Assembly (NCBI GenBank): GCA_950295325.1
Contig: OX485806.1
Span: forward strand, 44,015,169-44,079,168
DNA: 64,000 nt
Source of the DNA: Polytrichum commune
Taxonomy: Eukaryota > Streptophyta > Polytrichopsida > Polytrichales > Polytrichaceae
Direction of reading: 5' to 3'
Part shown: positions 1 through 59,880 of the stretch, piece by piece
Numbering within the stretch: the stretch's first letter is position 1
Layout of the letters: every line of letters starts with the position of its first letter
The notes under the pieces: generated by a model
What the model saw: the letters and a program-made list of their open reading frames with translations, nothing else
Told to the model about the DNA's origin: nothing
The model's database searches: none
Position numbers and translations under genes: made by a program

Positions 1-279
1 TCTGTATTCACCAGTGCAAAATTCCCACAATGATGATCCATTGTCGGCAACCCTAGAATTCTCACGGATGGTCAATGAAAAAATAGAAATAGCATTATCA
101 TAAATCTCGCATTCGACCCATATTGTACTATTTTGCAACAAAAACCTCATACTAAGGTGAAGGGAAGAGACAGATGCAAATTCGTTCGCATCTATGGGGA
201 AAAAAAGGGGGATCCCGACGCCATTGGCAAGGAGCTCAACCATTTCTGATAAACATGGCATTGTGGATGAGGAAGCCAT
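1..279 (-). pseudogene. 5' end of MULE-like transposase gene of element 1, cut by the window edge
   Basis: The minus frame starts with ATG at 279 and stays open for 93 codons to base 1. It is nearly the same as the first exon of the element 3 transposase at 53094: it begins MASSSTMP, continues with SEMVEL and IPLFFPIDAN, and has LHLSMRF and TIWVE in the middle. The N-terminal region of the element 2 copy is more distantly similar. This part precedes the catalytic domain, so function is inferred from the other two copies. The gene is divergent from the small gene at 486. Nothing here is broken, but most of the gene is missing, so whether it is intact cannot be told. Confidence 0.7.
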
Positions 280-375
280 GGACAAAGAGACAGACGAATA
301 AGAAAAAAATCCAAAAAAATGAATATGAGGCAAGGCGACTAGACGATTGGAAACCCTAAACTTTCAACAGTGCTA

Positions 376-383
376 CTATATAG
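376..383. promoter_or_regulatory. Palindromic CTATATAG, candidate shared TATA of two divergent genes
   Basis: CTATATAG lies between the transposase start (279, minus) and the small-gene start (486, plus). The same octamer is at 52990-52997 in element 3, with the same 103-bp gap to the small-gene ATG. Being its own reverse complement, it could serve as TATA box in both directions. The promoter role is inferred from position and conservation. Confidence 0.5.
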
Positions 384-485: not shown

Positions 486-817
486 ATGAAGGAACCAAAC
501 CAAAATATAGTCTCTACAATCGATCCAAGTAAGAAGCGGGAGGCACGAATTTCAGCAATTCGAAACAGAGGAGATGGAGAGAATTTAAGAAGAAGGAGGA
601 AACATGCATAGAAGGGAGAGGGACCCTTATAGACTCGCAAAATATGTGTGCAGTGGACAAGGGAGGGTTGAATCTACTTTCGATAGACGAAGAAGCGGAG
701 GACATTGGTTCACAAGCACCATCTATGGCACAGAGCGAGCATCGGAACAATTCAAATGAAAGCGGGTTTCGCGAGGAGAGAAGAGAGAATTCGATTATTA
801 CAGTAAATTTGTCGTAG
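486..817 (+). pseudogene. Small basic/acidic nuclear-type protein of element 1, frameshifted
   Basis: The ATG at 486 opens a frame starting MKEP-QN-VSTIDP, as in the element 3 copy (52600-52887, minus). The basic block after residue 15 has lost about 13 bases relative to element 3, so the start frame meets stops within about 45 codons. A second frame then carries the conserved FSNSKQRR, TCIEGRGT, DKGGLNL and SIDEE motifs and ends at TAG 815-817. The relatives have a Lys/Arg-rich N-terminal half (candidate nuclear localisation signal) and a Ser/Glu-rich tail, with no enzyme motif. The function is unknown. Its place next to the transposase resembles the second gene of autonomous Mutator elements (mudrB), but I see no sequence similarity to that gene. 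Confidence 0.55.
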
Positions 818-1203
818 AAGTTATATGCACAAGGGACACTTAAGAATTTAGGTTTATGGGAATAAGAGAATGGAAATTCAAATCTATAGACATGGAAGAG
901 AATTTGCAAACAATAGGGCAAGCAAGATATGGGTCGGGATTTTGAAAACAAAAAACTTGAACATCGGTGGGTTTTTGACTTGAAAGAAGGGTATTGTATA
1001 TGTGTATGTATATGGACTAGTGTATATGTATGTATGTTGAAATTCTTTGGGAATGCACTAGAGTCCGACACTCTCAAAACCGAGAGAGTCTTGATTTAGA
1101 TTGCTTGGACCAGATTTTGACTTGAATGGGTTGTAATATGGATGTCTATATATGTTGCCTAGCTAGGGTGATAACTTAATATTCTTCTGGAATACACTAG
1201 AGT

Positions 1204-2176
1204 TGTCGCAACCCTTGCTAGCCCCCTTAGCAATCTTGCCAATTTTCAATTCTAGCAAAGGTTACGAGCGCTAACCCTTCGCATACCGCCATGCTAATAG
1301 TTAGCTCCTCCTACCCAGGACCATATAATTCAAAGGAGGGGAACCAACCCTCCTACTTTGCTTTCGGGACTCACCCCTTAATCGGTAACCCATTTCTTCG
1401 ATGTGGACTTCCATCCATGAAAGTCCAATCCTATGTTGATTATCGCGTTGCCGGAGCAAGACTACAACAACCCGAAGAATACTAGGCAACTATGGCCTCA
1501 CAATGGGCCAAAGCCCATGGAGGCTGTGCCGTTCGGCCTCGGGTGGGTGAGGCCACACCACCTCACCCATATAAGCCTCTAGGACTCTACGCGGGGCCCC
1601 TACCCCACCGTCAACCAACCTCTTGTCTCTCCACCAAGAGTTGGGGCCAAGTAAACATTTTCCTTTAGCTGCTGGGCCTAGAAGCCCCCAACAACTTCAG
1701 ACCATCATAACTTCCTTGTATGATGTCTGATGCGAACAAGAAACCACTCCATCCTCGTCTATGCTTCACGTAGATGCCGATGGACTCCTCACTTGCCCCA
1801 TTCGGGTAAGTCTTGGGGAAGTTATGCCTGTTTGAACCTTGGCAGTCCCGGGAATCACTCCTAGGCACTGCTGTACCAGGGCGCTGTCCCGGGACAGCGC
1901 CCCACTCAAATGGCCATAACTCCTAGTTCACACCTCGGATTGAGGTGTTCTTGAGCTTTCTAGAATCACCACGCCATGACCTACGCATAGCTCATGGCCT
2001 TACCCTTGTGCCTCCTAGTCTCCGTGGGTGGGAGGCGTTCCCAACGCACGGGGCCCTCACCCACACTAGGATCACTTGGGCCCTCTCACCACGGCGCCAC
2101 AAGTCCCGGGTGTCACTCCGGGGTCCCCCTTGTGCCCATGGTGTTTCGGGCACACCTCATGGAGAGGTGCCCAACA
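1204..2176 (-). mobile_element. Solo LTR with 5-bp target duplication AGAGT
   Basis: A 973-bp block starts TGTCGCAACC and ends GTGCCCAACA. It is flanked by AGAGT on both sides (1199-1203 and 2177-2181) and interrupts one unit of the hairpin array. Its first ~600 bp match the sequence at 62251-62841, where the same LTR lies next to a tRNA-Met primer-binding site on the minus strand. That sets the orientation. With no internal region left, this is a solo LTR formed by LTR-LTR recombination. Confidence 0.88.
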
Positions 2177-5100
2177 AGAGTCCAACCCTTTTGGATCCGA
2201 GAAGGTCTTGGGTTGGGTTGCTTAGACCAGTTTTTGACTTGAATGGGTTGTAATATGGATGGATATATATGTTGCCAAGCTAGGGTGATAACTTGATATT
2301 CTTTTGGAATGCACTAGAATCCAACCCTTTTGGAACCTAGAGGGTCTTAGCTTGGATTGCCTAGACTAGATCTTGACTTGAATGGGTTGTAATATGGATG
2401 TGTATATATGTTGTTTACCTAGGGTGATAATTTGAAATTCTTTTGGAATGCACTACAGGACGACACTCTCGGATCCGAGAGGGTTTTGGGTTGGATTGCG
2501 TGGACCAAATTTTGATTTGAATGGGTTGTACTATGCATGTGTATATATATTGAGTACAGAGGGTGATAACTTGAAATTCTTTTGGAATGAACTAGAGTTC
2601 GACCCTCTTAGATCCGAGAGGGACTTGGGTTGGATTGCTTGGACCACATTTTGGCTTGAATTGGTTGTAATATGGATGGATATATATGTTGTCTAGCTAG
2701 GGTGATAACTTGAAATTCTTTTGGAATGCACTAGAGTCCAACCCTTTTGGAACCGACAGGGTCTTGGGTTGGATTGCTTGGAACAGATTTTGACTTGAAT
2801 GGGTTGTAATATGGATGTGTTTATATGTTGACTACCTAGGGTGATAACTTGAAATTCTTTTGGAATACACTAGAGGACGACCCTCTCGGATCCGAGAGGG
2901 TTTTGGGTTGGATTGCGTGGACCAAATTTTGACTTGAATGGGTTGTAATATGGATGTGTATATATGTTGAGTACGTAGGGTGATAACTTGAAATTCATTT
3001 GGAATGGACTAGAGTCCGACCCTCTTAGATCCGAGAGGGTTTTGGGTTGGATTGCGTGGACCAAATTTTGACTTGAATGGGTTGTAATATGGATGTGTAT
3101 ATATGTTGAGTACGTAGGGTGATAACTTGAAATTCATTTGGAATGGACTAGAGTCCGACCCTCTTAGATCCGAGAGGGTCTTGGGTTGGATTGCTTGGAC
3201 CAAATTTTGGCTTGAATAGGTTGTAATATGGATGGATATATATGTTGCCGAGCTAGGGTGATAACTTGATATTCTTTTGGAATACACTAGAGTCCAACCC
3301 TTTTGGATCCGAGAGGTCTTGGGTTGGGTTGCTTGGACCAGATTTTGACTTGAATGGGTTGTAATATGGATGGATATATATGTTGTCTAGCTAGGGTGAT
3401 AACTTGATATTATTTTGGAATGCACTTGAGTCCAACCATTTTGGAACCGACAGGGTCTTGGGTTGGATCGCTTGGAACAGATTTTGACTTGAATGGGTTG
3501 TAATATGGATGTGTTTATATGTTGACTTCCTAGGGTGATAACTTGAAATTCTTTTGGAATGCACTAGAGGACGACCCTCTCGGATCCGAGAGGGTATTGG
3601 GTTGGATTGCTCGGACCTGATTTTGACTTGAATGGGTTGTAATATGGATGTGTATATATGTTGACTACCTAGGGTGATAACTTGAAATTCTTTTGGAATG
3701 GACTAGAGTCTGACCCTCTCGGATCCGAGAGGGTCTTGGGTTGGATTGCATGGACCAAATTTTCACTTGAATGAGTTGTAATATGGATGTTGTGGGCCCA
3801 ATATTTAGGCCACATATGTTCCTAAGCCTTTATAAGTTATTAAGGTGTGGGCTTGAATTTTCTATCAAGCTATTAAAACTTAAAAAGAGTGATGTTATTT
3901 TTCGTACATTAGAGTTATGTTAAGAATAGGTTTTGAGTTAATTAAAAGGATTGTATTTTGGCCTTATTGATTTCAGAAATAGTTAAAGGCTAGGTGGTCC
4001 TAAGGGTGCAAAGGTTCGAATCCAAGGTTTTAGCGTCCGAATTGGGCTGATTCGATATCTGTTTAGAGGTAAGGGGGGGGGGGGCTTTTGCAGATAATCC
4101 ATGGGAGCGGCGAGGGGAAGGGCCCTCCATCTCTCTCTCTAGATCTGTCTGTGTGTGGGGGGGGGAAAATGGTGTGCGGCCAGGGGAGTGAGGAACGCTG
4201 GGAGATCGGAAAAAATTCTCTTCCAGCCGGTTGCTGGATTCGGCAGCCAACTGTGTGAAGGAATCAGGGGCACCTCGAAGAGGAGGCGCAACCTCAGGAG
4301 GGGGCATAAGCGCTAATGCAGTCTGGGTGGAGGTAGGATGAAGGATCCTGAAGAGATGAGGTGGCGACTCTTGAGCTCGCCAACAGCTCGAGCCTGTGTC
4401 ATGAAGGGTGGACTCATTGCAGCAGTGGAAGGGCAAGGAACAACATAAAGGAGCTCAAGAATGTGAACCGCCTGCTATCGAGGATTCACAGGCAGGGTAG
4501 ACTAGAAATTGAACGGGGAAGCTGCCATCGGTAGAGGCAGAACAGGGCGGTTTTACCGAGTTGGAAGGGAGCATCCAGAGGAGGGAAGCATATCCTCGCA
4601 TCATTAGCCGAAGGATGAATCGTAGTTGATTTGGGTGGCCTCCACCTCGGCAGTCACATGGTTGAGATGCCCTGGGTGAATGAGCATTCTGGATTGACTT
4701 CTGATGCTTCCAAGATCCCACATTCAACAGGGAAGGGTGGCCAGGGCCAGGACTCAACTGGAAGAACCTACAGCCGAGACCTGGATTCACAGTTGTGGAT
4801 TGACGGCTATGGGAGAGGCATGGGCTGCACAACCGGAGGCCCTACAACTAACAACTGCTTGAAGCACTGGGGAAAGGTAGATTCCAAGGAATTCGACTGC
4901 AGTAGGAAAGGGGATGCGAGAGAGGCAGTCTGCGGGGGAACAGAAGGGGCTGGACTCAGTGGTCCGAGGTGCAGGTCCGAGGACCAGGAGGTGGTAGGAT
5001 GCTGAAGATAGTCCTGGAGGTATCCAACAGCAAATGAGGAGTTGAGAGAGGGGCCTTGGGGGTTAGGCCCACAGCCAGGTTACAAGCGGATGTCATTAGT

Positions 5101-5299
5101 GTCGTAGATTAGCTTGTAAGGAGGGGCTTAATGAGTTAATAAGTGAATTAGTGTCACTGGCATTGGCAAACAAATTGTACTTAGGTTACCTAATAGGCCA
5201 CATAGGAAGTGTTGAGAAGAGTTAGGTGAACAAATGTATTTGGTTGAAGTTAAGGTGAGTGTTTGATAGTCACAATGCAATGTAATGGGCAACCATTCT

Positions 5300-5333
5300 A
5301 AGGTGACCGAGTATTTCTAAATACTGGTCACCT
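5300..5333. other. Long hairpin near the end of the LTR
   Basis: AAGGTGACC (5300-5308) pairs with GGTCACCTT (5325-5333), and inside these AGTATTT pairs with AAATACT. A near-perfect 16-bp stem with a 1- to 2-base loop results. AATAAA follows about 13 bases downstream (5346-5351). The arrangement suggests an RNA hairpin at the retroelement's polyadenylation region. Confidence 0.55.
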
Positions 5334-6423
5334 TGTGCTTTGTGAATAAAATTGTGTGTTGAATTTGACATGCGGTTGGGGTTGAGGATACCAGTCTAAA
5401 CATAAGGGTTGGAAAGAACAACACGTGTGGGCCACAAGCTCCTACCCGGACTACGACGCATAAGGGTGGGAATTTAAGGCTGACATAAATGGTGCGTCCG
5501 TCGGGAGTGAAGCGGGATTAGGAGACAAGACTTGGAGGCGATTAGGAAAGACTTGGAGGCACGAACTTGTGAGAGAGGAAGGAGCACTTGGGTGTGGTAA
5601 GTGTTCACATTGGTTTTTGAATTTTGGGTTTGATTAGATTAGTTGCATTTCAATTCTATCCTTGGAATGAATTGCATTTTTAATTAAGCATTTTGTTTTG
5701 AGGAAGCAGCGCGGCTTGAGGTAATTCCTAAACTTTCTTAAGAATGGCATAAGGATATAACATTAAGCTTGCGATCATTAGCTCACTAAAATCTTAGAGG
5801 GATAATTAAATTTAGGAAGAGACAACTTTGACGCTTACCTTTGGGTGATTTTCCAAGTTAGGGGATTTTTGAATTTGATGTGTAGACTAGGATTGTTAGT
5901 TTAGAGGTATTATGATGATGTCGCATTGAATCACGGTCGAGAGTGAGTGCTAATGTGTAGGGGGAAGCGAATTGCTTAAGGTATGATATTCTTCCAAGTG
6001 AAATTGCTAATTAATTAAGGAAGGAATTTAGTACTTGTCTTTGTCGTTATCCGTTGTAGAGGGTAATTCCCTAGTCATCGCATTGTATTGGAGACGAGAG
6101 GGTGATACCTCAGTCTTCAATGCAGTGCATGGTGAAGGTCAGCTCCTCACTTTCGGTATTGTGGTGAGTGCCAATTTAAGGAAGAGTGCGGAGGTGATTC
6201 TCCGGCTTGACTAAGAATTGGCATGAACATGCCTATCCCCTGTTTGGGGTTTTCATTTAAGTGGGCTTGCAGGTTCTCTTCTTCATCTCCTCAAGTTTTT
6301 TTAATTACACCAAGATAAGTGAAAACATTAATGAGTGAAGGTAGTGAGGGGTATGTTTGGTCAGGTGAAGGTTAATCGATTCCTTAGGGAATGTAAGGTA
6401 AGACTCGATCTCAAAAACTAAGG

Positions 6424-6867
6424 TTGGAATTAGGAGTAGACAAAGTTACACCTAGGAGAAGATCATCTAGGATTTCCGAAGTTGGAATTAGATTAGAAAA
6501 TTGTTTGAATGTGGAACCTAGTGTTAAACCGTTGTTAGGAATAGTAGAGGAAGAAGCTCAACTCGGGGACGAGACAACTCTTCCTAAGTTGGGTGACAAA
6601 ATAGCATCAGAGACTGATACACTTAGGGAAGGCATTTCAATAGGAATTGATAGGGCCATAGGAGGGGATACACCAGTCACCATGAGTCAGGATAGAGGCG
6701 GAGACGTGCCCATACCACCTATGGATCCCATGGATCCATTGGTTAGACCGAGAGGTCTGCCAATTGTGGTTCCACAAAACTAAGCGGTGGTGGATATGCC
6801 ATCCCACCTCCTTAAGTTTTATAGAACTAAAGATGAGGATCCTTCTAGGCACATGGAGAGGTACATT
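6424..6867 (+). pseudogene. 5' part of a retrotransposon gag gene
   Basis: An open frame from ATG 6424 runs 119 codons to TAA 6781-6783. It continues in the same frame with PSHLLKFY and DEDPSRHMERYI, which resembles the start of plant Ty3/gypsy gag domains (pattern LP-F-G--EDP--H---F). The N-terminal part is Arg-rich (RRRSSR) and then acidic. The frame runs into hairpin array at 6868, so the gene is cut. The in-frame stop and truncation make it non-functional. Family assignment rests on the short gag-like motif. Confidence 0.5.
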
Positions 6868-9827
6868 GACCAGATTTTGACTTGAATGGGTTGTAATATG
6901 GATGTGTTTATATATTGAGTACGTAAATTTATATCTTGAAATTCTTTGGAATGCACTAGAGGCCGATCCTCTCGGATCTGAAAAGGTCTTGGGTTGGATT
7001 GTTTGGACCAGATTTTGACTTGAATGGGTTGTAATATGGACGTGTATATATGTTGAGTACCTAGGGTCATAACTTGAAATTCTTTTGGAATGGACTAGAG
7101 TCCGACCCTCTTGGATCCGAGAAGGTCTTGGGTTGGGTTGCTTGGACCAGATTTTGACTTGAATGGGTTGTAATATGTATCGATATATATGTTGCCAAGC
7201 TAGGGTGATAACTTGATATTCTTTTGGAATGGACTAGAGTCCGACCCTATCGGATCCGAGAGGATTTTTGGATGGGTTGCTTGGACCAGATTTTGACTTG
7301 AATGGGTAATAATATGGATGCGTATATATGTTGAGGACCTAGATTTATATCTTAAAATTCTTTGGAATGCACTAGAAGCCGACCCTATCGGATCCGGGAG
7401 AGTCTAGGGTTGGATTGTTTGAACCAGATTTTGACTTGAATGGGTTGTAATATGGATGTTCATATATGTTGAGTACGTAAATTTTTATCTTGAAATTCTT
7501 TGGAATGCACTATAGGCCGACCCTTCGGATCCGAGAGGGTCCTGGGTTGGGTTTCTTGGACAAAATTTTGACTTGAATGGGTTGTAATATGGATGGATGT
7601 ATATGTTACCAAGCTAGGGTGATAACTTGATATTCTTTTGGAATGGACTAGAGTCCGACCCTCTCGGATCCGAGAGGGTCTTGGGTTGGATTGTTTAGAC
7701 CATATTTTGACTTGAATGGGTTGTAATATGGATGTTTTTATATGTTGAGTACGTAAGTTTATATCTTGAAATTCTTTGGAATGCACTAGAGGCCGACCCT
7801 ATCGGATCCGAGAGGGTTTTTGGTTGGGTTGCTTGGACCCGATTTTGACTTGAATGGGTTGTAATATGGATGGATATATATGTTGTCTAGCTAGGGTGAT
7901 AACTTGATATTCTTTTGGAATGGACTAGAGTCCGACCCTCTCGGATCCAAGAGGGTTTTGGGTTGGATTGTTTGGACCATATTTTGACTTGAATTAGTTG
8001 TAATATGGATATTTTTATATGTTGATTACGTAAATTTATATCTTGAAATTCTTTGGAATGCACTAGAGGCCGACCCTATCGGATCCGAGAGGATTTTTGG
8101 ATGGGTTGCTTGGACCCGATTTTGACTTGAATGGGTTGTAATATGGATAGATATATATGTTGTCTAGCTAGGGTGATAACTTGATATTCTTTTGGAATGG
8201 ACTAGAGTCCGACCCTCTCGGATCCGAGAGGGTCTTGGGTTGGATTGTTTGGACCATATTTTGACTTAAATGGGTTGTAATATGGATGTTTTTATATGTT
8301 GAGTACGTAAATTTATATCTTGAAATTCTTTGGAATGCATTAGAGGGCGAGCCTCTTGGATCTGAGAGGGTCTTTGGTTGGGTTTATTGGGCCAAATTTT
8401 GACTTGAATACGTTGTAATATGGATGGATATATATGTTGCCAAGCTAGGGTGATAACTTGATATTATTTTGGAATGGACTAGAGTCTGACCCTCTCGGAT
8501 CCGAGAAGGTCTTGGGTTGGATTGTTTGGACCAGATTTTGTCTTTAATGGGATGTATATGTTGCCTAGCAAGGTGTGATAATTTGCAATGTTATTGTAAT
8601 GGACTAGGATCCGACCCTCTCGGATATGAGAGGGTCTTGGATTGGATTGTTTGGACTTGATTTTGACTTAAATGGGTTGTAATATGGATGTGTATATATG
8701 TTGAGTACCTAGGGTCATAACTTGAAATTTTTTTGGAATGGACTAGAGTCTGACCCTCTCGGATCAGAGAGGGTATTGGATTGGATTGCTTGGACCAAAT
8801 TTTGACTTGAATGGGTTGTAATATGGATGTGTATTTATGTTGAGTACCTAGATTCATATCTTGAAATTCTTTGGAATGCATTAAAGGCCGACCCTATCGG
8901 ATCCGAAAGGGTCTTGGGTTGGGTTGCTTGGACCTGATTTTGACTTGAATGGGTTGAAATGTGGATGGATATATATGTTGCCTAGCTAGGGTGATAGCTT
9001 GATATTCTTTTGGAATACACTAGAGTCCAACCGTTTTGGATCCGAGAAGGTCTTGGGTTGGGTTGCTTGGACCAGATTTTGACTTGAATGGGTTGTAATA
9101 TGGATGGATATATATGTTGCCTAGGTAGGGTGATAACTTGATATTATTTTGCAATGCACTAGAGTCCCACCCTTTTGGAACCAAGAGGGTCTTGGGTTGG
9201 GTTGCTTGGACTTTATTTTGACTTGAATGGGTTGTAATATAGATGTGTTTATATGTTGAGTACCTAGATTCATATCTTGAAATTCTTTGGAATGCACTAG
9301 AGGCGGACCCTCTCGGATCCGAGAGGGTCTTGGGTTGGGTTGTTTGGACCAGATTTTGACTTGAATGGGTTGTAATATGGATGGATATATATATGTTGCC
9401 TAGCTAGGGTGATAACTTGATATTCTTCTGGAATGCACTAGAGTCCAACCCTTTTGGATTCGAGAGGGTCTTGGGTTGGATTGCTTGGACCTGATTTTGA
9501 CTTGAATGGGTTGTAAAATGGATGTGTATATATGTGGACTAGGTAGATTCATTTGTTGAAAGTCTCTGGAATGCACTTGAGGCCGACCTTCTCGGATCTA
9601 AGAGGGTCTTGGGTTGGGTTACTTGGACCAGATTTTGTTTTGAATGGGTTGTAATATGGATGTGTACATAGATTGATTAGCTAGGTTCATATGTTGAAAT
9701 TGTTTGGAAATGCTGTAGAATTCGAGCCTCTCGGTTCCGAGAGGGTGTTGGTTTAGTATGTTTGAACTACATCTACACTTGAGGTTCTAAAGCTTGTATG
9801 TGTGAATTTTTGCAAGGATCACAATCC

Positions 9828-11499
9828 ATGGATCTTATTCTCTCGGAGGCGCCTCAATGGAGGACTATAATGTTCCATTGGAGGTTCCTGTGGTAGGAAT
9901 TGGGGCATTATTTCATCCCTTTTGTCAATAGATGTTTCATTCATTGGAGTTCCCTTTTTTCCTTGTTCTCCTTACACCGCCTTGAGTTGTTTGTGTTTCA
10001 GTTAATTTGGCCGTTGGCTTATGTTTTTCCGGTTGCCCTTGTAGAGTGATGCACCTATTGCAACCGATTTTTTGCGTCCACTTGATGAGTCCAACCCAGA
10101 GGACACAAAACTATTGATTCGGAAATCAGAGAAAGAGGATTCTAATGTAGTGATTCACCGGGTTCGAATTAAACCTCTTCTTAAGTCGCGTTTCTCTATC
10201 CCACTATGTTGCTTGCGTTGTCCTCCACTTGTTCGTCCCATCAACGAGGTTGATGTCGTTCGGTTGGAAAATTAGTTTGTCATGGGTTACCGTGACGGTG
10301 ACCGAGCCTTGTATGTCTCTCCCTACAACAACCTCAATGAGGTACTCCATGTCTCTGATGACATCCTCAATTCCTGGAGTTCATTATGGCAAAAGGCCAA
10401 CGAGGAATTCGACGCCATGCTCCAAAATGACCCTGACCTTGCTCACCTTTATGGCAAGATGTTCTACGTGTGGAAGGGTAACCATCGTTTGTCGGCTTGG
10501 TGGAGGCACATTAATAAGCATCACTCGCTGGATAAAGATTGGCATATCGTTGTTGACTGTATTGTCATGGATCCAAGAAATTCCACCGCGGTTTTCTTAA
10601 ATGCCATGAATGACATCAATTGGTAAGTTCAGTTTTCTTTTCCTTTTTTTTATCCTTGTTTTATGTTGCATTGTTTCTTTGATTCTCATTATTTTGATTT
10701 TTAGGTCCACGGAGCACGATCATGTTAAGGACAACCTCCCTGCCAAATTGCTTTGCATTCGTACATTTGGAAAATTGAAGCTTGAGGATTTCAAGGACTT
10801 CATTTTTGTTCACGACTACAAGACTTGCGAGTCTAAGATGGAAAAGAATCCTACTTGGTATCCTCTCACATTGAATGTCTTTGTCAAGTTCTTATACAAT
10901 GTAATTTTACTCTTCGCTTTTGTTTTTTTCTATCCTCATGTTCTATGCATTTATCTTTACACACATCTCTGTTTGTTTTAGAGAGAGATATCCAATGCGG
11001 CGGATATTGCTGCACAATTATACCGTGAGGCCACTCCCGAGGCTCTTAGATCTGCTCCTGGGATTTGGGACGCTATGACAAAAACGCAAGATGGATTGAT
11101 AAAAAATATTCGATCTCGGAGCTTTGAAAAGTTCATCTCCGTCACCCACAAGGACAACGGCGATGACTTCTTCCAAGAGGTACTCCCTTCACCTCTTCAT
11201 TTTTTATTTGCTTCCAAGTTCGTGTTTTTCCATTTGTGCTTTAAGTATATTTTCTTATATTGCACTAGTCTATTTTGCAGATTGACCGTCATTTTTCCAC
11301 CTTCTTTGTCTCGGATATGACTATTGAGAACCTCCAAAAGTTGGCAACTACACATGTGGATGCTTCTTTTAAGGCTAGGTGGCTTCGATGGTGGAATTCC
11401 CCCGCCGATGTTAAAACCAAAAATAGCTTCCCCTCTTCTCTTCCTCTTTGCGAGAAAGTCCTCAATGATTGGCTTCACAAAGCTTCTTTTTGGGCACAA
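9828..11499 (+). pseudogene. ParB-like/DNA-methyltransferase fusion gene of element 1, exons 1-5
   Basis: Exons, by comparison with the copies at 22475 and 51519: exon 1 9828-9892, exon 2 10045-10622, exon 3 10705-10900, exon 4 about 10982-11179, exon 5 11281-11499; all introns are GT-AG. Exon 2 holds the ParB-like core: RFSIPLCCL, RPINEVDV, GYRDGDRALYVSP, then KGNHRLSAW (the G-x-H-R motif of the ParB/sulfiredoxin fold) and FLNAMNDINW. Exons 3-5 are conserved without a known domain (STEHDHV, WYPLTLNVF, FWAQ). Damage: a 1-base loss in exon 1, GAG to TAG at 10273-10275 and a small indel near the start of exon 4. The next exons are at 30333, on the far side of element 2, so this is the 5' half of a split gene. 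Confidence 0.72.
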
Positions 11500-11559
11500 G
11501 TACTCCACTACCTTCTTCAGCATAGTAGGATTAGATTTTAACTTGAATGTTGTCTAATA

Positions 11560-12090
11560 TGTATGTGTGAATAGGTTGAAGATGTGTGGACAAGCTTGGT
11601 TGATATGTTCACATAGCTTGCCTATGCACTAGAATTTGACCCTCTCTAGAACCGAGAGGGTTTTGATTGCGGTTGTGTGGTCTAGATTATGAATTGAATG
11701 GGTTTAATATAGATATGTATATATGTGGACTAGCTAGGGTGAATTGTTGAAATTCTTTGGGAATGCACTAGAGTCCGACCCTCTCCGATCCGACAGGGTC
11801 TTGCATTGGGTTGCATGGAGCAGATTTTGACTTGAATGGGTTGTAATATGGATGTGTATATATGTTGAGTACTAGATTCATATCAGGAAATTCTTTGGGA
11901 ATCCACTAGAGTCCGATCCTCTCGGATCCGAGAGGGTCATGGTTGCGGTTGTTTGGACCAGATTTAGACTTGAATGGGTTGTAATATGGATGTATATATA
12001 TGTTGACTACCTAGGGTGATATCTTGAAATTCTTTTGGAATGGACTAGAGTCCGACCCTCTCGGATCCGACAAGGTCTTGGGTTGCGTTG
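11560..12090 (+). repeat. Intron 5 hairpin array of element 1, left part
   Basis: Four units of the same ~139-bp repeat as at 960-9760, with hairpin arms ACCCTCTCGG/CCGAGAGGGT, AT centre in most and GGACCAGATTT. They start directly after exon 5 in what was intron 5. The array stops inside a unit (GGGTTGCGTTG) where element 2 begins and resumes at 28941. Confidence 0.85.
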
Positions 12091-12161
12091 TGAATGACGT
12101 GTGTCATACACGTTTATGAAAAAGAACATATATATGAGACTAATAAATAAATTTGATTACT

Positions 12162-16007: not shown

Positions 16008-16073
16008 TGAGAAACAATTTGACAATGCTATGGGAGAGGGAATTTGCAAAAGAGGGATCGAAAAGAAACAATG

Positions 16074-16638: not shown

Positions 16639-16693
16639 TGGAGAAGATATTGATGAGATGACATGAGGGGAAATGGTAGCAATAATCGGGCAT

Positions 16694-43300: not shown

Positions 43301-43309
43301 CCTACATTC

Positions 43310-49052: not shown

Positions 49053-50018
49053 TGTGAGGCCAAATCCACCACCTTTAAGCGTCATAGTCCGGGTGATGGT
49101 TTTGAGAATTACATGTGTCATACCAAAACTCGTGGTAACATTGAATGTACTTCCATCTCAACAAGCTCCCAACTCACTTGAAATCATGATGCTTTATTAA
49201 TGCTAGTCTCTTGAATAGGTAAAGCATTGGCATTTTCAAGGGTCGACAAACTACTACACTTAACCTTACTAAGTCCCCTACAAATCTCTATGAATTCTAC
49301 TAATTCCACTAATCCTTCTACTAATTCCCACACAACTCTAATTCTAAAACTCAATTCTATGAGAGGAACAACAAGAGGGAGAGAGAGAGAAGCAGAGGGG
49401 AAGGGAGAGGATAAGGGGACCTCGTATGAACCTCTCCCCTTTACCCACACTCCCCTCTCAATACAACATGCTCATGTGCCCACACACACGTGTGCACCCA
49501 CACATGCAAGATGGAAGAGAGAGTGAATAGGAACACAAGTGAGTGAAGAAGGTGAGAGAAAGGAATATATAAGGGAAGGGAAGGGGCGAGCACCCCTCAA
49601 AGCTCAAGATAAGCCCCTCGATCCTCTCCTACTTTGTAGGCTCTTATCCCATCCGCTAAGTAAGCCCCTCGATCCTCTCTTACTTCTTAGGTTTTTATCC
49701 TATCCGCTAAGTAAGCCCCTCGATCCTCTCTTACTTCGTAGGCTCTTATCCTATCCGCTAAGCCTTCAACTCCTAAACCAACAAGATGGATCCCAATTCA
49801 AATATTTAAACTCAAGGAGCTCCCCTTGGTCCACCACATGCTACACTCACCTAACCAAAGAATTTCCTTCATGCCGCTAAGCTTTTAATTAATCACACCA
49901 CATAAGCCTAAGGCCTAAACATAACTTCATACCTGAGAATAATCATAAAACATCAAAATATAACTCCTAATGGTTTCAAAGGGTTAATAACACATGTGGG
50001 CACCATTTTGGGCTCATA
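49053..50018. mobile_element. 966-bp solo LTR with 5-bp target duplication GGGAA, in exon 5
   Basis: It starts TGTGAGGCCAAATCC and ends GGGCTCATA, with GGGAA at 49048-49052 and again at 50019-50023. Removing it and one GGGAA restores the exon 5 frame seen in element 1 (VKTKN then REKVL). It contains a TATA-like GAATATATAAGG near 49563 and three ~47-bp copies of AAGCCCCTCGATCCTCTC... near 49610-49760. It is unrelated to the solo LTR at 1204. Confidence 0.9.
49610..49765 (+). repeat. Three tandem ~47-bp repeats in the solo LTR
   Basis: AAGCCCCTCGATCCTCTC, TACTT-GTAGG and CTCTTATCCTATCCGCTAAG occur three times with few differences. Such repeats are common in U3 regions of LTRs. Confidence 0.8.
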
Positions 50019-51559
50019 GGGAACTTGTTTTTGGTTTTGACCTCGGCGAGGGAATTCCACCACCGAAGCCACCTAGCCTTAAAGGAAGCATCCACATGTG
50101 TTGTTGCCACCTTTTGGAGTTTTTCAATAGTCATATCCGAGACAAGGAAGGTGGAGAAATGATGGTCAATTTAATAAATAAAATAGTGTTACGTGAGAAA
50201 ATATACATAAAGCACGAGTTCAAATACACAAAAATTGAAGCAAATCAAAATTGAATATGTCAAGGAAGTACCTCTTGGAAGAAGTCATCGCCGTTGTTCT
50301 TGTCTGCGATGGAGATGAACTTTTCAAAGCTCCGAGATTGAATACTTCTGATCAATCTATCCTGTGCTTTGGTCATAACATCCCAAATCCCAGGAGTAGA
50401 TCTAAGAGCCTCGGGAGTGGCCTCGCGGTATAACCGTGCAGCAGTGTCCGCTGAATTGGATATATCTTTCTACAATAAACATAATTGTGTGTAAGGATAC
50501 ATGCATAAAACATGATAAAGGAAACAAATATTATCGAGGAGCATAATTACCTTATATAAGAACTTGACAAAGACATCCAATGTGAGGGGATACCAAATAG
50601 GATTCTTCTCCATCTTAGACTCGCACATCTTGTAGTTGTCAATAGAAACGACGTCCTTGAAATCCTCAAGCTCCATTATTCCAAATGTTCGAATCCGAAG
50701 CAATTTGGCAGGGAGGTTGTCCTTGACATGATCGTGCTCCGTGGACCTAAAAAACAAAGTAATGAGAATCATAGTAATACGGATAATAAACAAAGAAAAT
50801 AAACAAGGAAAATAAAGCTCATCTTACCAACTGATGTCATTCATGGCATTCAAGAAGACTATGGTGGAATTCCACCACGTAGAACATCTTGCCAGAAAGG
50901 TGTTCAAGGTCAGGGTCATTTTGGAGCATGGCGTCGAATTCCTCATTGGCCTCTTGCCATAATGAACTCCAAGAACTGTGGATGTCATTGGAGACATGGA
51001 GTACCTCATTGAGGTTGTTGTAGGGAGAAACATACAAGGCTCGGTCACCATCACGGTAACCCATGACGAACTCATTTTCCAACTGAGCGACATCAACCTC
51101 GTTGATGGGACGAACAAGTGGAAGACATCGCAAGCAACACAATAGGAGAGAGAAACGCGACTTAAGAAGAGGCTTGATTCAAACCCGGTGAATCACAGCA
51201 TTAGAGTTTTTTTTTTATGATCTCCGAATCAAGAACTCAGTCTCCTCTGGGTTGGACTCATCAAGAGGACGCAAAGAGTCGGTTCCAACAGGTGCATCAT
51301 TCTACAAAGGTAGCCACAAAAAACATTCAGTAGTGGCGAAAAAATTCAAAACACGAACAACCCGAGGCGATGTTTCAAAATCAAAGAGAAAAATGTATTC
51401 AAAAAATGAAACATATATTGAAAAAATTGATGAAGCACTGCCCCAATTCATACCACAGGAACCTCCAATTGAACATTGTGTTCCTTCATTGATGGCTCCT
51501 CCGATAGAATGAGATCCATGGATTGTGATCCCTGTACAAATTCAGGACACGATGAGTTC

Positions 51560-52455
51560 ACACTAGTTCAACCTATCTACACATGCATGCTTACTCTCGT
51601 CCTACTTCCTATCCAATGAAACTCTCGGTTCCTAAATTGCTCCACTAAGACCCTCTAGGAACCGAGAGGGTCCAATCCAGTCCACATACACACTAGTCCA
51701 ACCTATATACACAAACAAGCTTTTAACCTTCAAGATCAAAATATGGTCCTACATTCCTCCACATAGACCCTCTCGGTTCCGAGAGGGTGCAATCCATTCC
51801 ACTTACAAAGTAGTCCAACCTATATACCCTAACAAACTTTCAACCTCCGCGTGCAAAATCTGGTCCTAAATTGCTCCACATATACCCTCTCGGAACCGAG
51901 AGGGTCCAATCCATTCCACTTTCAAACTAGTCCAACCTATATATCCTAACAAGCTTTCAACCTCCTCGTGCAAAATCTGGTCCCAAATTGCTCCACATAT
52001 ATCCTCTCGGAACCGAGAGGGTGCAATCCATTCCACTTACAAAGTACTCCAACCTATCTACCAAATAATCCAACCTATATACCCTAACAAGCTTTCAACC
52101 TCCCCATGCAAAATCTGGTCCTAAATTTCTCCACATATACCCTCTCGGAACCGAGAGGGTGCAATCCATTCCACTTACAAAGTACTCCAACCTATCTACC
52201 AAATAGTCCAACCTATATACACAAACAAGCTTTCAACCTTCGAGTTCAGAATCTGGTCCTTCGTTCCTACCCTAAGACCCTCTCGGAACCCAAAGGGTCC
52301 AATCCATTCCACATACAGAGTAGTCCAACCTATATACACAAAGAAGCTTTCAACCTTCAAGTGCAAAATCTGGTCCTACATTCCTCCACTAGGACCCTTT
52401 CGGAACCGAGAGGGTCCACTCCATTCCACATACAAAGTATTCCAACCTATATACA
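51560..52455 (-). repeat. Hairpin array upstream of the element 3 ParB-MTase, TT/AA centre
   Basis: About seven units of roughly 120-140 bp with arms ACCCTCTCGG/CCGAGAGGGT and AA or TT centre, AATCCATTCCAC, GTCCAACCTATATAC and (minus strand) GGACCAGATTTTGCA. It fills the space between the 5' end of the ParB-MTase and the end of the small gene, the same place as in elements 1 and 2. Confidence 0.87.
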
Positions 52456-52599: not shown

Positions 52600-52887
52600 C
52601 TAATTAGAATTGTTCCGATGCTCGCTCTCTGCCATAGATGGTGCTTGTGAACCACTGTCCTCCCCTTCTTCGTCTATCGACTGCAGATTCAACCCTCCTT
52701 TGTCCAATGCAGACGTATTCTTCGAGTTTGATGGGGTCCCTCTTCCTTCTATGCACGTTTCCTTTTTCTTCTTAAGCTCTCTCCGTCTCCTCTGTTTTGA
52801 ATTGCTGAAACTCGTGCCTCCTTTTCTCTTTTTCCGCTTATTTCCTGGATCGATTGTGGAGACTGTATTTTGGTCTGGTTCCTTCAT
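52600..52887 (-). CDS. Small basic/acidic protein divergent from the transposase (element 3)
   Basis: The frame runs from ATG 52887 to a stop at 52600-52602, 95 residues. Residues ~17-45 are strongly basic (NKRKKRKGG, KQRRRRELKKKK), a clear candidate nuclear localisation or DNA-binding region. Residues 65-90 are Ser/Glu-rich (SIDEEGEDSGSQAPSM). The element 1 copy reads on past the stop (ESGFREERRENS), so this copy may be shortened by about 15 residues. Together with the element 2 copy this is a conserved second gene of the element family. The function is unknown. It starts 103 bp from CTATATAG, shared with the transposase promoter region. Confidence 0.6.
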   Translation of the reverse strand: MKEPDQNTVSTIDPGNKRKKRKGGTSFSNSKQRRRRELKKKKETCIEGRGTPSNSKNTSALDKGGLNLQSIDEEGEDSGSQAPSMAESEHRNNSN

Positions 52888-52997: not shown

Positions 52998-53629
52998 TAC
53001 CACTTTTGAAAGTGTAGGGTTTCCAATCGTCGGGTAGCCTTCCCTCGTATTCCTATTTTTGGATATTTTTCTTATGCGTCCCTCCCTTTGTCCATGGCTT
53101 CCTCGTCCACAATGCCATCTTTATCGGAAATGGTTGAGCTTCGTGCCAATGGCGTCGAGATCCCCCTTCTTTTCCCCATAGATGCGAACGGATTTGCATC
53201 TGTCTCTTCCTTTCACCTTAGTATGAGGTTTTCGTTGCAAAACAATACAATATGGGTCGAACGCGAGATTTATGATAATGCTACTTCTCTTTTGTCATTG
53301 ACCATCCGTGAGCATTCTAGGGTTGCCGACAACAGATCTTCAGTGTGGGAACTTTGCGCTGGTAAATACAGGGTGTAAGGACTCCCAGATTCTTGCTCCA
53401 ATGTATCCATGGAAATCCGTACCTGTGAACCCTTTGAGTGGTCCACCATTCCGCGGGATCACTTTTAGTTAGAATGTTAGCATTAAAAGTTAGAATTGAT
53501 AGGGAATTTAGGAAAAATTAGTTCATTTAGCATTTAGCCTAGAAGAAGGAGGTCAAAATGAAACTAAGTAGTGCTAGAAGATAGCAAAGTAGAAAAAATA
53601 TGCTAGCTAGTAAAAACAACTAGCTAAGC

Positions 53630-53750
53630 GAATATTAGTAGATGCTAGCTATTAAGTAAATGTTAGTAGATGCTAGCTAAGCAAATATTAGTAGATGCTA
53701 GCTATTAAGCAAATGTTAGTAGATGCTAGCTAAGCAAGTGTTAGTTTATT
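53630..53750. repeat. AGTAGATGCTAGCTA tandem repeat
   Basis: Four imperfect copies of a ~32-bp unit with TTAGTAGATGCTAGCTA alternating with TTAAGCAAATG or AGCAAATA, near the left end of the insertion. Confidence 0.75.
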
Positions 53751-54079
53751 AGTTAGTGTGAGGCACACAAGACTATTGGAGGTGTTTTGCGTAAGAAGAC
53801 AAAACCGGCTTAAAGACTTTTGAAGAAAATTAGAAAGACAGCAAGGGGGCTACTTGCCCACTTGCCCCCTTGCCAACTCGATGGCGGAAAAATTAGAAAG
53901 ATATCTAAAGGTTTTTGTCGGAGCCACCTCGGCGAGAGGGTGGCAACCTCAACCGGGAAAACCCCCGAGCCAAAATTTCGGGAAAGGATTTGAAAAATGG
54001 ATCCGGTGGAGGAGGGGTCCAACCCTTTTGTGAGAGGGTTTAAAAACCCCTCCTTCCACCTTGTGGCTCTTTCTCTTTC

Positions 54080-54300
54080 TATAGTTTTTGGGCGAAGCCC
54101 TGTTTCAATGTAGTTAGGAGAAAATCCTTTAGCATGTATTCTCAATGGCTTAAGACAAGGGCTTCAGAAACTCCTCACTCTCTCTTCCTCTAATGTTTAG
54201 GCGATGCCCTGCGTCAATGTAGTTAGGAAAAAATCCTTTAGCATGCATTCTCAATGGCCTAAAAGAAAGGCTTGAGAACCTCCTCTACTCTCTCTCCTAG
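54080..54300. repeat. Direct duplication of about 125 bp
   Basis: GCGAAGCCCTGTTTCAATGT, AGTTAGGAGAAAATCCTTT and AGCATGTATTCTCAATGGC are repeated about 120 bp later with few changes. It lies inside the insertion and holds no gene. Confidence 0.75.
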
Positions 54301-56460
54301 TTAGAATGTGTGTTTATTAACACACCAACAAAATTATTCCTTCTTTTGTAGAGGTAGGTTGGATAGTAGAGTTTTTAGTGGAGGCATTGTAGACCTCATC
54401 TGCCAATGCCTTGAAGGCCTAGTTCAGAAGCTAGAACAAGATACTTATCATTTTCCTCTTAGAGATATTTCCTATAGCTATCCATAGCCGTTTTCCATTT
54501 GTGATTTGGTTAAGATGACAATTAGTTATGGATTTTCAAAGATGGAGTAGAAAAACTCGGTGGTCTTGTGGGTAGCGGCTGCTGGATCAGACCTGCAAGC
54601 CCAATAGGAATTTTAATTCCAAGAAGTTATATTTTTCCCAAGTAGAACTTTTGTGTAGCTTTCCAAAATGGCTTAGAACATTTGATTTGAGCATGATTTG
54701 AATTAGATATGAATTGTGCAAGATGGGACACATAGTTTGAGAACTTTTGGTTGACTGCTGCATTACAGAGGATCTGCTGGGTTCACTTCGGCTTACCTTT
54801 CTAATCACATATTTTTATCAAATACGTCTTTTTAATATCTCTCTAGGGTCATATAGAACGTTTGATTTGAATAAGATTTGAATTAGATATGAATTGTTGA
54901 AGGCCAGATACATAGTTTAAGCCTTCTTGATTGACTGCTGTATTACAAGGAGTTTGCTGAATTTCTTTTAGCTTAACCTGCTGATGTCATAATTTTTCTA
55001 GTTAAAATTTGTTCATAGCTTTCCAATGGTATAAGGAAAGCCTAGATCCAAGTAGTAAGGAATGTGCTATGAATTTTTGAAGTTAGAAGGTAGATAGGTG
55101 GGTTGGAAGGGTCGGTTGAATCGACCTCACACTTCCAACCCTCATAACTTTTGCAATTCTTATCGATTAAAGTGATTTTTAGATCATTGGAAAGATAATT
55201 AGGTGCACTAAGTATAAATATTATTCTTAGGATTAAATTACAGTGCAGAATAAATACTTTATATTTTAATTGTTAACTAAGGTAAGCTTACTACCAAACT
55301 AGTTACAAAGAAGGAGGCAAGGTCGACGCTAGGGAAGTGGAGCAAGAAAGGAGGTAGCGGCTCGGCCTACATCGAGCCCAAATCAACCGAGGAGAATTGA
55401 GGTAAATTTACTAACGCTAGCCTTCTATTTAGGGTTGGAGGGAGCACGGCTAAGGTACGCATCTCTAAACCCACTCACCTATCTCGTAAGGTCAAGTGGC
55501 TTGACCACTTGACCGCCAAGGGAGTACCCAATTCCATTATTTTCGGGGCCCTTGGTATGTTTTGTGGTAGTAGCTTCATTTATTAGCAAGTTTCGTGTGT
55601 GGTAAGTCGGATTAATCACCGACACGACCACTCTGAATGTTGTTGGTGGAAAGGTGGGGTTAATGACCCGCGAATCCACTATTATGTTGTTGGCCCCATA
55701 GATTGGGAGTAATGGCCCCAATTTATGAAGATTGCGCAACAGGTTGTACCTGCAGGTTGCCCGTCACCCTGGTCCCATTGAGTTGCATTTCGTGGTCTAT
55801 CCAGTGTAAACACATTTAACAATCAAAACATACAAAATAAATCGTAAACCCTTGTTGGCAAGAGACCCGAATCGGAAACTTGACTCGGTAGAGTGACACC
55901 ACCCTTCGAACCATTGATGTCCGAAGGGTTTGAGATGTTACTCGACCTTCAAAGGACCTGCACGAGGCCTTAGAAGGTTCCGAGGTAAGGGGTACACCAA
56001 CCAGGTAAGGGGTGATGCCTAATATGTTAATGTAGTGAGTTAGGACGTGCAAACAAAAATAAGTAATTAAGAAGGAATTTGTTGAAGGGTGGGACTTAGG
56101 CCAAGTTCCCCCGCTTAGAAACTAAATAGAACTAAATAAAGAAATATGAAGAATTGAATGGTCCATCAAATTGTTGTTATTCCGTTCGTTGAGTTAGGGT
56201 GGTATGAGTCACACCCGGTTGGGTGTATCAGAACCATCCCAATTCACAAATTAGGATTGCCTTGGTTTCAAGGCTGGTGCGTCTGCGCGTAGAATAGGTT
56301 GTAGGTTAAGGTTAGAACTAGATATGAAATTGGTTAGTGGAGTTTAAAGCCACATTAGTAAAAAACTAAGGCCCAACCTCCGGAGGTACTACGACGCATA
56401 TTTAATCTCCCTTAAAAATCTAACTACTCACGTTATACACCTATCATTCGGGTTCGGCTT
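54300..56460. other. Body of the insertion, no gene recognised
   Basis: About 2.2 kb with only short frames in all six readings and no recognised protein motif. Paired near-repeats around GATTTGAATTAGATATGAATTG (54690 and 54880) suggest internal duplication. Confidence 0.45.
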
Positions 56461-59400
56461 GGGCGCCTGCAAGTGCAGGCCACCTTCACCGAAGGGCTTG
56501 TGTGATACTTTTAGGCTCCCTCAAAAGGGGGTGGCCCAAAAATACCACAGTACCCGTCCCCATTCCTCTTCTTCCACTTTAAACACTCCTCCCGTGGTCA
56601 AGGTTAAGATTGAACCTCATATACACAGTGTCATACATCTTTAGATTCCTCCGATGCTGATGAGCCCCCTCTATTCACTCCCTTTGTCAAGCCATCCCCT
56701 TCCTCCCTCAATTCCCCCTTGCTGACCCTCGCCCTTGTAGGCCTTCAACCTTTATGTCCTCTTCCTCCTTCCCCTGCCAAACCATCATTTCTATTCTTGA
56801 ATGCCTACGTTCTCTTGCTTCTACGCCCGGTAGGAAGAACATCCTCAAGAAGCTAGATTATGACACTTTGCAAATTCAAGAGGTCAATTTCCTCCCCCCT
56901 CGCTTTGATGGGAATCGGATGTTTGTCCTCCCCCCAGTAGGCGTCTCGTCCTCTCATACGAAGGCCAAATCCTTGGACGGCATGGACAAACGCTATGACG
57001 GCCGTGTTTGGACCAAAACTCAGACCACCAATATCACCAATGACATGGGCCTTGCTTTTCGCTACCTCCACTTGCGTTGGCCACCTCCAGTGCCAAAATC
57101 CTCAGTGCAATTACCTACAACGTGCTCATCGGACCTGCCCGGTCAATGATATTGATTTCGACGGATTCACCAAAGAGCCCTTCCCCGTTGGTGGACCCTT
57201 GCCTTTGGGATCCACTCTAATGTGCCGGATCTGTAAGGAGCCTCCCAAATGCATTGCACCATGTCACGCCAAAATTTTCTACGTCCACGACAATGACACC
57301 ACTCAGCGTGTCTGCATTCATGTGGGCAACCATCGTCACCCCGTCAAGGTTGACAACTGCAGAGATAGCCGCAAGCACATCGACGCCCTTATCGAGGAGC
57401 ACGTCGAGCGAACGCCCCAAGCCACTCATAGCAAAATCGTTCTTGAAGTCAGCAAAGACATGTGGGTGAGTTCAACTTCCGCAATGAGAGTGATCCTCAT
57501 CAACTTCTTTCTTTGGAAGAACTTGAGCTCATTTTTTATCGTTGCAAAGAGTTGAATTCCTCGCACCTCCGAAACAAGGTTACCTTTTTCAAATACTTAC
57601 ATAGGTTAGGAGTTATGGATAGCATCGCCAAGCTTAGAGGTGTCAGCACTTGGGCCTATGTCCAGCGGAATCAGTTCCCGGGCCAAGGTAACGAGACAGA
57701 CAGTTTTTGTTTTCAAGATGTTTGAAGTCGGCCCTAGTAGTGGGGTCGACTTGGTTAGGCGCATGCAACCTGGCAGGGATCTCGGGCATGCTTGGATCAT
57801 GTCCGACCATGTCAAACGCGTCGCCAAGTGGACCACCATGGCCTACCACGTATACGACGGAACCTACCAGTGTGTCATGACCATCGCTTGCTGCGACTTC
57901 CAATCCGAGGACAATGATGCTCAAGTGTTTTTCTGGCATAACCTCAATCACGTCATGGCCCGCCATGGAATCCCCAAGCCTCACTTCAAAGGCTTCATGG
58001 CGGACAGTGCGCAAGCCAATTGGAATGCCGTCAGGTTTGTCTACGGGTCTGGTGATCCAAAGGTTCCCATCGATGGGTGTGAGAGAACCTGCTTTTTCGA
58101 TTGGACACAGTCTTCGGAGAGACACACCAAATTCTATATCAAACACGACTTGCAAGACCAACACAAACGTCTCTACCTCCAGTATCGCGGCGCATCCTCT
58201 ATGCAGTGAGCTGAGACGAGGTACCTCGCCATCAAGGTCTGGTGGGCTTCGTCTAACTGCACCTCCGAGCATGGACTGAAACACCTCCAACTTTGGTTTG
58301 CCTTCTGGCACTTCCGATATCGACAATGGGGTGGCTTCGTGGAATTGGTGCGTCTTTACTGTTATTACTTCTTGTTTTTTGTTTTAAATTTCATTTTCCC
58401 AAACTTTGTTTATTTCTCACACTACCATTTCATTGGCAAGAGAAAATCATGACCGCCGAGGAATTTGCACAAATGCCCAATTGCAACCTTGCCGAATCCA
58501 TTCACAACAAATGACTTTAAGCGTCCGACAACAAAGGTGGCGATTTATACGTGGCCACTGTGGATGACTACATTCAAGCGTTCCTCCAAGTTATGGTGTA
58601 CCATCAATTTCTGAAATGTGGCATTGGGGGTGATGGCCCTAGCAAAAAATAACTCAAGCTTCGATGTGCTCAACGTCGTGTTCTACAGAAGGTTCTCCTC
58701 GACCTGCCCGGCGGGGACGAATTCTGCACCCGTAGTCCCCACCTCGAGGGTGCAGAGATATTCGGCTCGCAAAAACGGAAGCCCGACACTCCCATTGAAG
58801 ACGACGATAAAACCCACCGCCTTGACACCATCAACTTCTCTCGCCCTCGTGTCGCTCAGAGAACCACAAGATCTCATGCTTCTCCTTTGCCTACCATCGT
58901 CAAGGGGTCCTATCCGTCTGTGCTAGAGGTTTCACCACCCCCTCCTACTGGTCTGGATTTTCGCTGTGTCACTGCTATTTAAGAATCCAAAGTGGACGAG
59001 AAGCTCTGGCGTATTGCTCGCGTTCCTTACAATTCCTCCAAGGCATGTTGGGCCATGCATGGTGTCACCAAAAAGAAATGCACTGCAAAAATCGTCTCCA
59101 ACTCCAAAAAGACCCCTGCCCCGGCATACCTTGGAATTTGGTACTATGACAAATTTACAACACCTAAAGTTGAGAAGTTATTTTTTTGCCCTAACGGCAT
59201 TGAGCGTTGTGTCAAAGGTTCACGACGCAAGTGGGTCGACAAATTCTATGCTGACCAATAATGACCTCCGATCCCTCTTGTGTGGCCTGCCAAGCTTGGT
59301 ACCAACCTCACTCGTCTGGAGATCCTCAAGCTTGAAAATGCCGGCTCTCAATTCCCGCAAAAAGAACGCATCATGCCCACTCGCCTCTTTAACACATCCG

Positions 59401-59880
59401 CTCCTCCCCTGGACCTCTCAGGAGTAGACGTTCCAGCCAACCCAGACTCTTATCTTCCTTCCAGGCAGTCTAAGTCTACCAGACGGTCTGCCACCGCACC
59501 ATCAACAAAACAAATGGAGATGGTGGCGTCTGCACGAGCTATGGACGGGACCATCTTGAAGGTCACCATGATTCTACCTCCTAGATTTGGTTGTGTGATC
59601 ATGTTGCAGTCCAAGCCTGTACCTACACAATCCATTTACCAACTCACCGTGAGTTCTCTGCTCGGGTGTAATTGCCCGGCATTCAAGGATATGATATCAA
59701 AATTTGGCCGCAAACAAAATTCGTTCTTGCATTGTAAGCACCTTTACTTCATCTTTGTGAAGGTCTCTGATGTAGACCCGGACGTTGACTTGTTCATTCA
59801 CGCCCCGACATTTAACTTCAATGAGGTCAAATTCATCCTCGAAGGGGGCCTCTTGACACAATCTACTTCTTAGAATTCCT

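What the first reader, a model, noticed from the sequence alone, without database searches (positions are those of the whole stretch)
1..59880. A family of giant transposons that pair a MULE/SWIM transposase with a ParB-like DNA-methyltransferase gene
Elements 1, 2 and 3 show transposase (or its 5' end), divergent small gene, hairpin array, ParB-MTase and a shared terminus in the same order and relative orientation; element 5 keeps the array plus the start of the ParB-MTase. Recurrence in elements with clearly different sequence argues that this is one mobile unit and not chance neighbours. MULE elements that carry host genes (Pack-MULEs) and autonomous MuDR with two genes are known. I know of no described family with a ParB-methyltransferase gene as a standing part. 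The sequence shows the layout; that it is one unit is inferred.
Basis: partly seen in the sequence, partly recalled or inferred. Interest (0 to 1): 0.95.

Follow-up and report, generated by a model that had tools for sequence, protein, structure and literature searches.

The report
Moss jumping genes carrying ParB-methyltransferase-like gene
Three large, partly decayed transposons in what is probably a moss genome share one layout, a Mutator-like transposase, a small basic-acidic gene, arrays of one palindromic DNA site and a gene for a ParB-like, methyltransferase-like protein, which suggests that the element makes its own DNA-binding protein to control or protect itself.

Summary
The layout is real. 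The window holds three nested or abutting elements, EA, EB and EC, plus fragments ED and EE. EA, EB and EC share one order and relative orientation: transposase (or its 5' exon), divergent small gene, palindrome array, ParB-MTase-like gene, terminus. EB (12095-28940) lies as one block inside an array of EA, the best sign of one mobile unit. EB and EC differ strongly (transposase about 52%, ParB-MTase about 35% identity), so the pairing looks old. The transposase resembles Mutator types (WRKY/GCM-like finger, IS256-like catalytic fold, SWIM motif), but no curated HMM passes. The second gene has a methylase-type C-terminus and weak ParB support. Its catalytic DPPY motif reads D-x-x-E in 6 of 6 copies, so classic methylase activity is doubtful. 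The arrays hold 91 close copies of one palindrome, usually with a second box at fixed spacing, and no excess of compensatory changes: more like a protein-binding DNA site than an RNA hairpin. No inverted terminus pair and no target duplication were seen. Best reading: a new moss MULE-like family whose second protein probably binds the arrays, as VANC does in Arabidopsis VANDAL elements. The source genome could not be searched.

The parts
1..362 (-). EA: 5' exon of transposase (rest lies left of the window)
   Evidence: within the 2-899 stretch that matches EC 53371-52461, 86% DNA identity; open frame
486..872 (+). EA: small basic-acidic gene, frameshifted (limits approximate)
   Evidence: translation matches EC small gene
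973..9782 (+). EA: palindrome array 1 (973-1203, 2174-3790, 6868-9782), split by stretches 1204-2173 and 3791-6867
10043..11500 (+). EA: exons 1-4 of ParB-MTase-like gene
   Evidence: homology to EB and EC
11624..12094 (+). EA: palindrome array 2 in intron 4, part left of EB
12095..28940 (.). EB: whole block inserted in EA array 2 (edges set by eye)
   Evidence: EA-type array on both sides
12165..16007 (-). EB: transposase, exons 16007-13896 and 13625-12165, four in-frame stops
17315..17722 (+). EB: small basic-acidic gene, divergent from transposase
   Evidence: GGxxFSxSKxxRR motif shared with EA and EC
18821..22229 (+). EB: palindrome arrays: shared site (20238-21537) and two further palindromes
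22475..26837 (+). EB: ParB-MTase-like gene, 10 exons, two in-frame stops
   Evidence: 9 introns with GT..AG ends; Ceratodon homologues
28890..28940 (-). EB: terminus, diverged
28941..30331 (+). EA: array 2 continued right of EB
30331..36040 (+). EA: exons 5-10 of ParB-MTase-like gene, interrupted by an insertion at 31135-34889
36410..36459 (-). EA: terminus
36460..40683 (-). ED: remnant, ParB exon (36460-36626) and palindrome array (36898-40683)
40684..40733 (+). EC: terminus
42114..44600 (-). EC: palindrome array 3, downstream of ParB-MTase gene
44725..47137 (-). EC: exons 5-10 of ParB-MTase-like gene
47168..48867 (-). EC: palindrome array 2 in intron 4
50015..51544 (-). EC: exons 1-4 of ParB-MTase-like gene
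51630..52455 (-). EC: palindrome array 1
52600..52887 (-). EC: small basic-acidic gene (limits approximate)
53094..59873 (+). EC: transposase, interrupted by an insertion at about 53376-56550
59881..59931 (+). EE: terminus-like 51 bp, same orientation as 40684

Best explanation
A family of large (EB 16.8 kb, EC 19.2 kb with an insertion) transposons of the Mutator (MULE) kind in a moss. Each encodes a transposase, a small basic-acidic protein, and a ParB-like, methyltransferase-like protein transcribed away from the transposase. Arrays of one palindrome plus a 13-bp box lie between the divergent genes, in intron 4 of the ParB-MTase gene (EA, EC) and, in EC, beyond its 3' end. Most likely the ParB-MTase-like protein binds these arrays as a dimer and keeps the element open to transcription against host silencing, the role that VANC plays in VANDAL elements; its methyltransferase domain is probably no longer a classic base methylase. 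Shown: layout, EB as a block inside EA's array, conservation of the palindrome and box across diverged spacers, no excess of compensatory changes, degenerate motif IV. Inferred: that this protein is the one that binds the arrays, the anti-silencing role, autonomy of intact copies, moss host.
Confidence: 0.5

Rival explanations
1. The ParB-MTase is an active amino-methyltransferase that methylates adenine or cytosine in the element's own DNA (the arrays being its recognition sites), marking or protecting it.
For: Methylase fold signature over the SAM motif I region; selection on the protein; DIRS retrotransposons are reported to carry adenine methylases (PMC5890265, passages).
Against: Motif IV reads DAPE, DVHE or DVSE in 6 of 6 copies (EB and three Ceratodon; EA; EC), where the aligned phage enzyme has DLPY.
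Confidence: 0.17
2. The arrays are binding sites of the transposase (subterminal or enhancer sites); the ParB-MTase gene is captured cargo with a role unrelated to the arrays.
For: Array 1 lies between the transposase and the ParB-MTase gene; some transposases bind repeated subterminal motifs (recalled).
Against: Arrays also sit inside intron 4 of the ParB-MTase gene and beyond its 3' end, far from the transposase; the gene is kept in strongly diverged elements.
Confidence: 0.17
3. Transposase block and ParB-MTase block are two separate elements nested by chance.
For: The terminus is shown only at the ParB-MTase end; EC's transposase ends 7 bp from another terminus copy.
Against: Same order, orientation and small gene in three elements of two diverged lineages; EB inserted as one block.
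Confidence: 0.1
4. The arrays act as RNA hairpins (small-RNA source or processing signal).
For: Strong palindromes; array 2 lies in an intron, so it would be transcribed.
Against: Double changes restoring pairing are no commoner than by shuffle (5 against 4.95; 564 of 1000 shuffles reach it).
Confidence: 0.06

Closest known systems
VANDAL elements of Arabidopsis (VANA, VANB, VANC), a MULE group
   Same: SWIM transposase, degenerate terminal repeats, extra genes, short motifs in tandem repeats placed in introns and upstream of the transposase; the second protein diverges faster than the transposase (PMC5735166, PMC10398659, PMC6446971).
   Different: The second protein is ParB-methylase-like; no DUF1985 or DUF287 hit in the three Ceratodon relatives scanned. 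Host and motif (a 22-bp palindrome here) differ. Anti-silencing is untested here.
Fungal transposons carrying TET/JBP dioxygenases (Kyakuja, Dileera, Zisupton and others)
   Same: DNA transposons with a standing DNA-modification-type gene (PMC12730594, abstract and section 4.2).
   Different: Dioxygenase versus ParB-methylase-like protein; other transposase families as far as tested (no KDZ model hit).
DIRS and other retrotransposons with DNA methyltransferases
   Same: Mobile elements carrying a methyltransferase (PMC5890265, passages).
   Different: Retrotransposons, not DDE elements; none described there, in the passages seen, as fused to ParB.
Bacterial and phage ParB and amino-methylase proteins
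   Same: Methylase domain aligns with phage adenine methylases; weak ParB hits.
   Different: Intron-bearing eukaryotic gene, about 1120 residues, degenerate motif IV.

Membership tests
MULE (Mutator) superfamily | Mutator/IS256-type DDE catalytic domain | tested here: inconclusive
MULE (Mutator) superfamily | Zinc finger of WRKY/GCM type and/or SWIM motif CxC..CxH | tested here: inconclusive
MULE (Mutator) superfamily | Terminal inverted repeats (absent in some groups) | tested here: inconclusive
   No inverted copy at the transposase end of EB or EC, 2 of 2 ends examined; those ends may be truncated.
MULE (Mutator) superfamily | 8-11 bp target duplication | tested here: inconclusive
   None seen by eye around EB, the only block flanked by one target on both sides; deletion likely.
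VANDAL | VANC-type second protein (DUF1985, DUF287) | tested here: not met
   Only PF01555 listed for P0001-P0003 at E up to 5; the spliced EB protein itself was not scanned whole.
VANDAL | TE-encoded protein bound to its tandem-repeat motif and loss of methylation | not testable with these tools
   needs ChIP or EMSA and bisulfite data
KDZ transposons | KDZ transposase domain | tested here: inconclusive
   no KDZ model among the 22 Pfam families hit by 50 relatives at E up to 10; but MULE models hardly hit either, and most of the 50 lack exon 2
N6/N4 amino-methyltransferases | SAM motif I region | tested here: met
   PHROG best E 2.5e-5 and PF01555 stretch over motif I; residues depart from DPFxGSG: D-W-S-x-x-T-G in EB and Ceratodon, D-W-Q-C-G-I-G in EC, first D lost in EA
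N6/N4 amino-methyltransferases | motif IV D/N/S-P-P-Y/F/W (consensus recalled) | tested here: not met
   D-x-x-E in 6 of 6 copies
ParB/Srx-like domain | profile match and GxxR-type motif | tested here: inconclusive
   phrog_1033 in 7 of 27, best E 0.0027; DUF6551 0.048 in 3 of 27 and DUF1015 0.04 in 1 of 27; no ParB Pfam hit; model pLDDT 49

The most novel reading that the evidence does not exclude
A eukaryotic transposon family has rebuilt a bacterial-style partition module: a ParB-like protein loads on element-borne palindromic arrays (parS-like), spreads along the element, and holds off silencing or steers the element's chromatin, with a methylase domain turned into a reader. It would be an anti-silencing system that arose independently of VANC.
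Probability: 0.13. Interest if true: 0.92.

Novelty: new variant of a known kind. Interest (0 to 1): 0.7.

Why it matters
If right, mosses carry a second, unrelated solution to the problem that VANDAL elements solve with VANC: a transposon-encoded, sequence-specific protein with target arrays spread through the element. It would let one ask whether anti-silencing evolves repeatedly, would give a new sequence-specific DNA-binding scaffold (ParB plus former methylase), and could explain the unnamed ParB-methylase-like genes of Ceratodon.

Tried and rejected

Literature: 9 searches. Searches held no paper. The others list only part of what they found (20 of 69; 12 of 15; 15 of 737; 12 of 34), and everything (9; 2; 3); by title and abstract start no listed paper describes such a family. 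The library holds open-licence papers only. Papers, what I saw: PMC12730594 abstract and section 4.2; PMC5735166 abstract, part 1 of the Results, the section on target evolution and passages; PMC6446971 abstract and passages; PMC10398659 and PMC5890265 passages. None read whole.

Full report
What is there. The window is eukaryotic and intron-bearing. The three proteins found with the spliced EB ParB-MTase-like protein are all from Ceratodon purpureus, at 47-49% identity (3 hits among 6552 candidates), so a moss host is inferred. Self-comparison and reading of the sequence resolve the region into nested or abutting elements. EA runs from left of the window to 12094 and again from 28941 to 36459. 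EB (12095-28940) sits inside EA's array 2: EA-type 139-bp units flank it on both sides. EC runs from 40684 to about 59880. ED (36460-40683) is a remnant with the start of a ParB-MTase gene and an array. EE is a 51-bp terminus copy at 59881.

Layout. In EA, EB and EC the order is transposase (or its 5' exon), divergent small gene, array, ParB-MTase-like gene and terminus, 3 of 3 large elements. The small gene shares the motif GGxxFSxSKxxRR and an acidic tail. The EB ParB-MTase-like gene has 10 exons, 9 introns with GT..AG ends and two in-frame stops. In EA and EC array 2 lies between exons 4 and 5. EB has stops in both large genes, EC has stops in both and an insertion in the transposase, EA has stops and an insertion in the ParB-MTase gene; of EA's transposase only a 5' exon is in the window, without a stop.

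One unit? For: EB lies as one block in EA; EB and EC are about 52% identical in the transposase and 34.5% in the ParB-MTase (EA 36.6%; tblastn pieces that overlap and include some intron), so the pairing has lasted. EA against EC shows dN/dS 0.44 over 760 codons of the ParB-MTase gene, with 5 and 10 stop codons and 76 unaligned codons left out, and 0.46 over 90 codons of the small gene; but 0.93 over 119 codons of the transposase 5' exon, and ParB-MTase exon 5 alone gives 6.98, perhaps from a wrong frame. Against: the terminus is shown only at the ParB-MTase end. EA and EC share about 300 bp there, EE only 50-51 bp with them, EB about 30 bp with EC and an inner block with EA. EB's terminus stands out by the 36-bp matrix (20.1; shuffles at most 13.7) but not by the 24-bp or 50-bp one. 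No inverted copy was found at the transposase ends, the copy at 59881 is in direct orientation, and EB shows no target duplication; part of an array unit seems to be missing across the EB junction, which fits a deletion of that end.

ParB-MTase-like protein. The C-terminal part is a methylase by profile (best PHROG E 2.5e-5; best PF01555 E 0.0024 below its cut-off) and residues 460-699 of P0001 align with a whole phage adenine methylase, although in the phage search itself E was 0.03. There, DLPY of the phage enzyme stands against DAPE. EB and three Ceratodon proteins read DAPE, EA DVHE, EC DVSE: 6 of 6. Motif I is also altered (DWSxxTG, DWQCGIG; the D is lost in EA). The N-terminal exon has 27 listed relatives among 194 candidates with a conserved YEGNHRxTAW stretch; 7 of 27 hit a phage ParB-like partition family, best E 0.0027, over that stretch. 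No ParB Pfam model is hit and the structure model is poor. So ParB-like is likely but not proven.

Arrays. ACCCTCTCGGNNCCGAGAGGGT occurs 91 times with up to 3 mismatches, 0 expected, and 103 times with up to 5, 102 of them in the arrays (0 or 1 in each of 5 shuffles). Spacing is mostly 139 or 138 bp (35 and 21 gaps). Spacers differ between elements, but the palindrome stays and a box GGACCAGATTTTG follows at 16-18 bp (up to 3 mismatches): EA 34 of 36 and 10 of 10, ED 18 of 18, EC 23 of 29 (a 24th site at offset 11); EB only 5 of 9, at 18 or 20 bp. Within a group the arms are 0.89-0.98 conserved and the flanks 0.57-0.92; in one EA group the flanks are as conserved as the arms, so the argument rests on the comparison between elements. 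EB has two further palindromes of its own. Changes in the two arms do not compensate each other more than by chance (5 against 4.95 expected). This is the pattern of a protein site with dyad symmetry.

How it probably works. Anatomy and comparison point to an element-encoded protein that binds arrays in promoter, intron and 3' regions. VANC of VANDAL elements does this: its targets form tandem repeats in introns of VANC21 and VANB21 and upstream of VANA21, and VANC causes loss of methylation (PMC5735166, sections seen; PMC10398659 passages). The ParB-MTase-like protein is the natural candidate here, because it is the large second protein kept by the three elements and diverges faster than the transposase, as a legend says of VANC and VANA. 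That it binds the arrays and that it counters silencing are inferences.

Novelty. TET/JBP dioxygenases in fungal DNA transposons (PMC12730594) and methyltransferases in retrotransposons (PMC5890265) are known. In the rows listed by my 9 searches I saw no DNA transposon with a ParB-methylase gene; four of those lists were capped and the library holds only open-licence papers. I file it as a new variant of a known kind: a MULE-like element with a helper gene of a new type.

Noticed in passing
31135-34889: GC-rich insertion in exon 7 of EA's ParB-MTase gene, with TGTGGGA..TCCCACA ends, perhaps an LTR-type element
   Followed up: partly
39158-39415: Short element with about 20-bp inverted ends (CACTATATTCGTTAATTTG) inside the ED array
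   Followed up: no
1204-1803 and 62251-62848: Direct repeat, 90.7% identical, perhaps ends of a retroelement
   Followed up: no
60050-64000: Probable Gypsy-like remnant on the minus strand with a CCHC zinc-knuckle frame at 63656-64000 (identity recalled, not tested)
   Followed up: no
18836-22222: Two further palindrome families special to EB (AACCCAGCCTCGGAGGCTGGGTT and GGTGCCTGCGATAGCGCAGGCACC)
   Followed up: partly
23941-24128: TCAACTC microsatellite in intron 3 of the EB ParB-MTase-like gene
   Followed up: no
L001 1-4101: Contig filed under a cyanobacterial MAG carries a two-exon transposase of this family, probably moss contamination
   Followed up: partly
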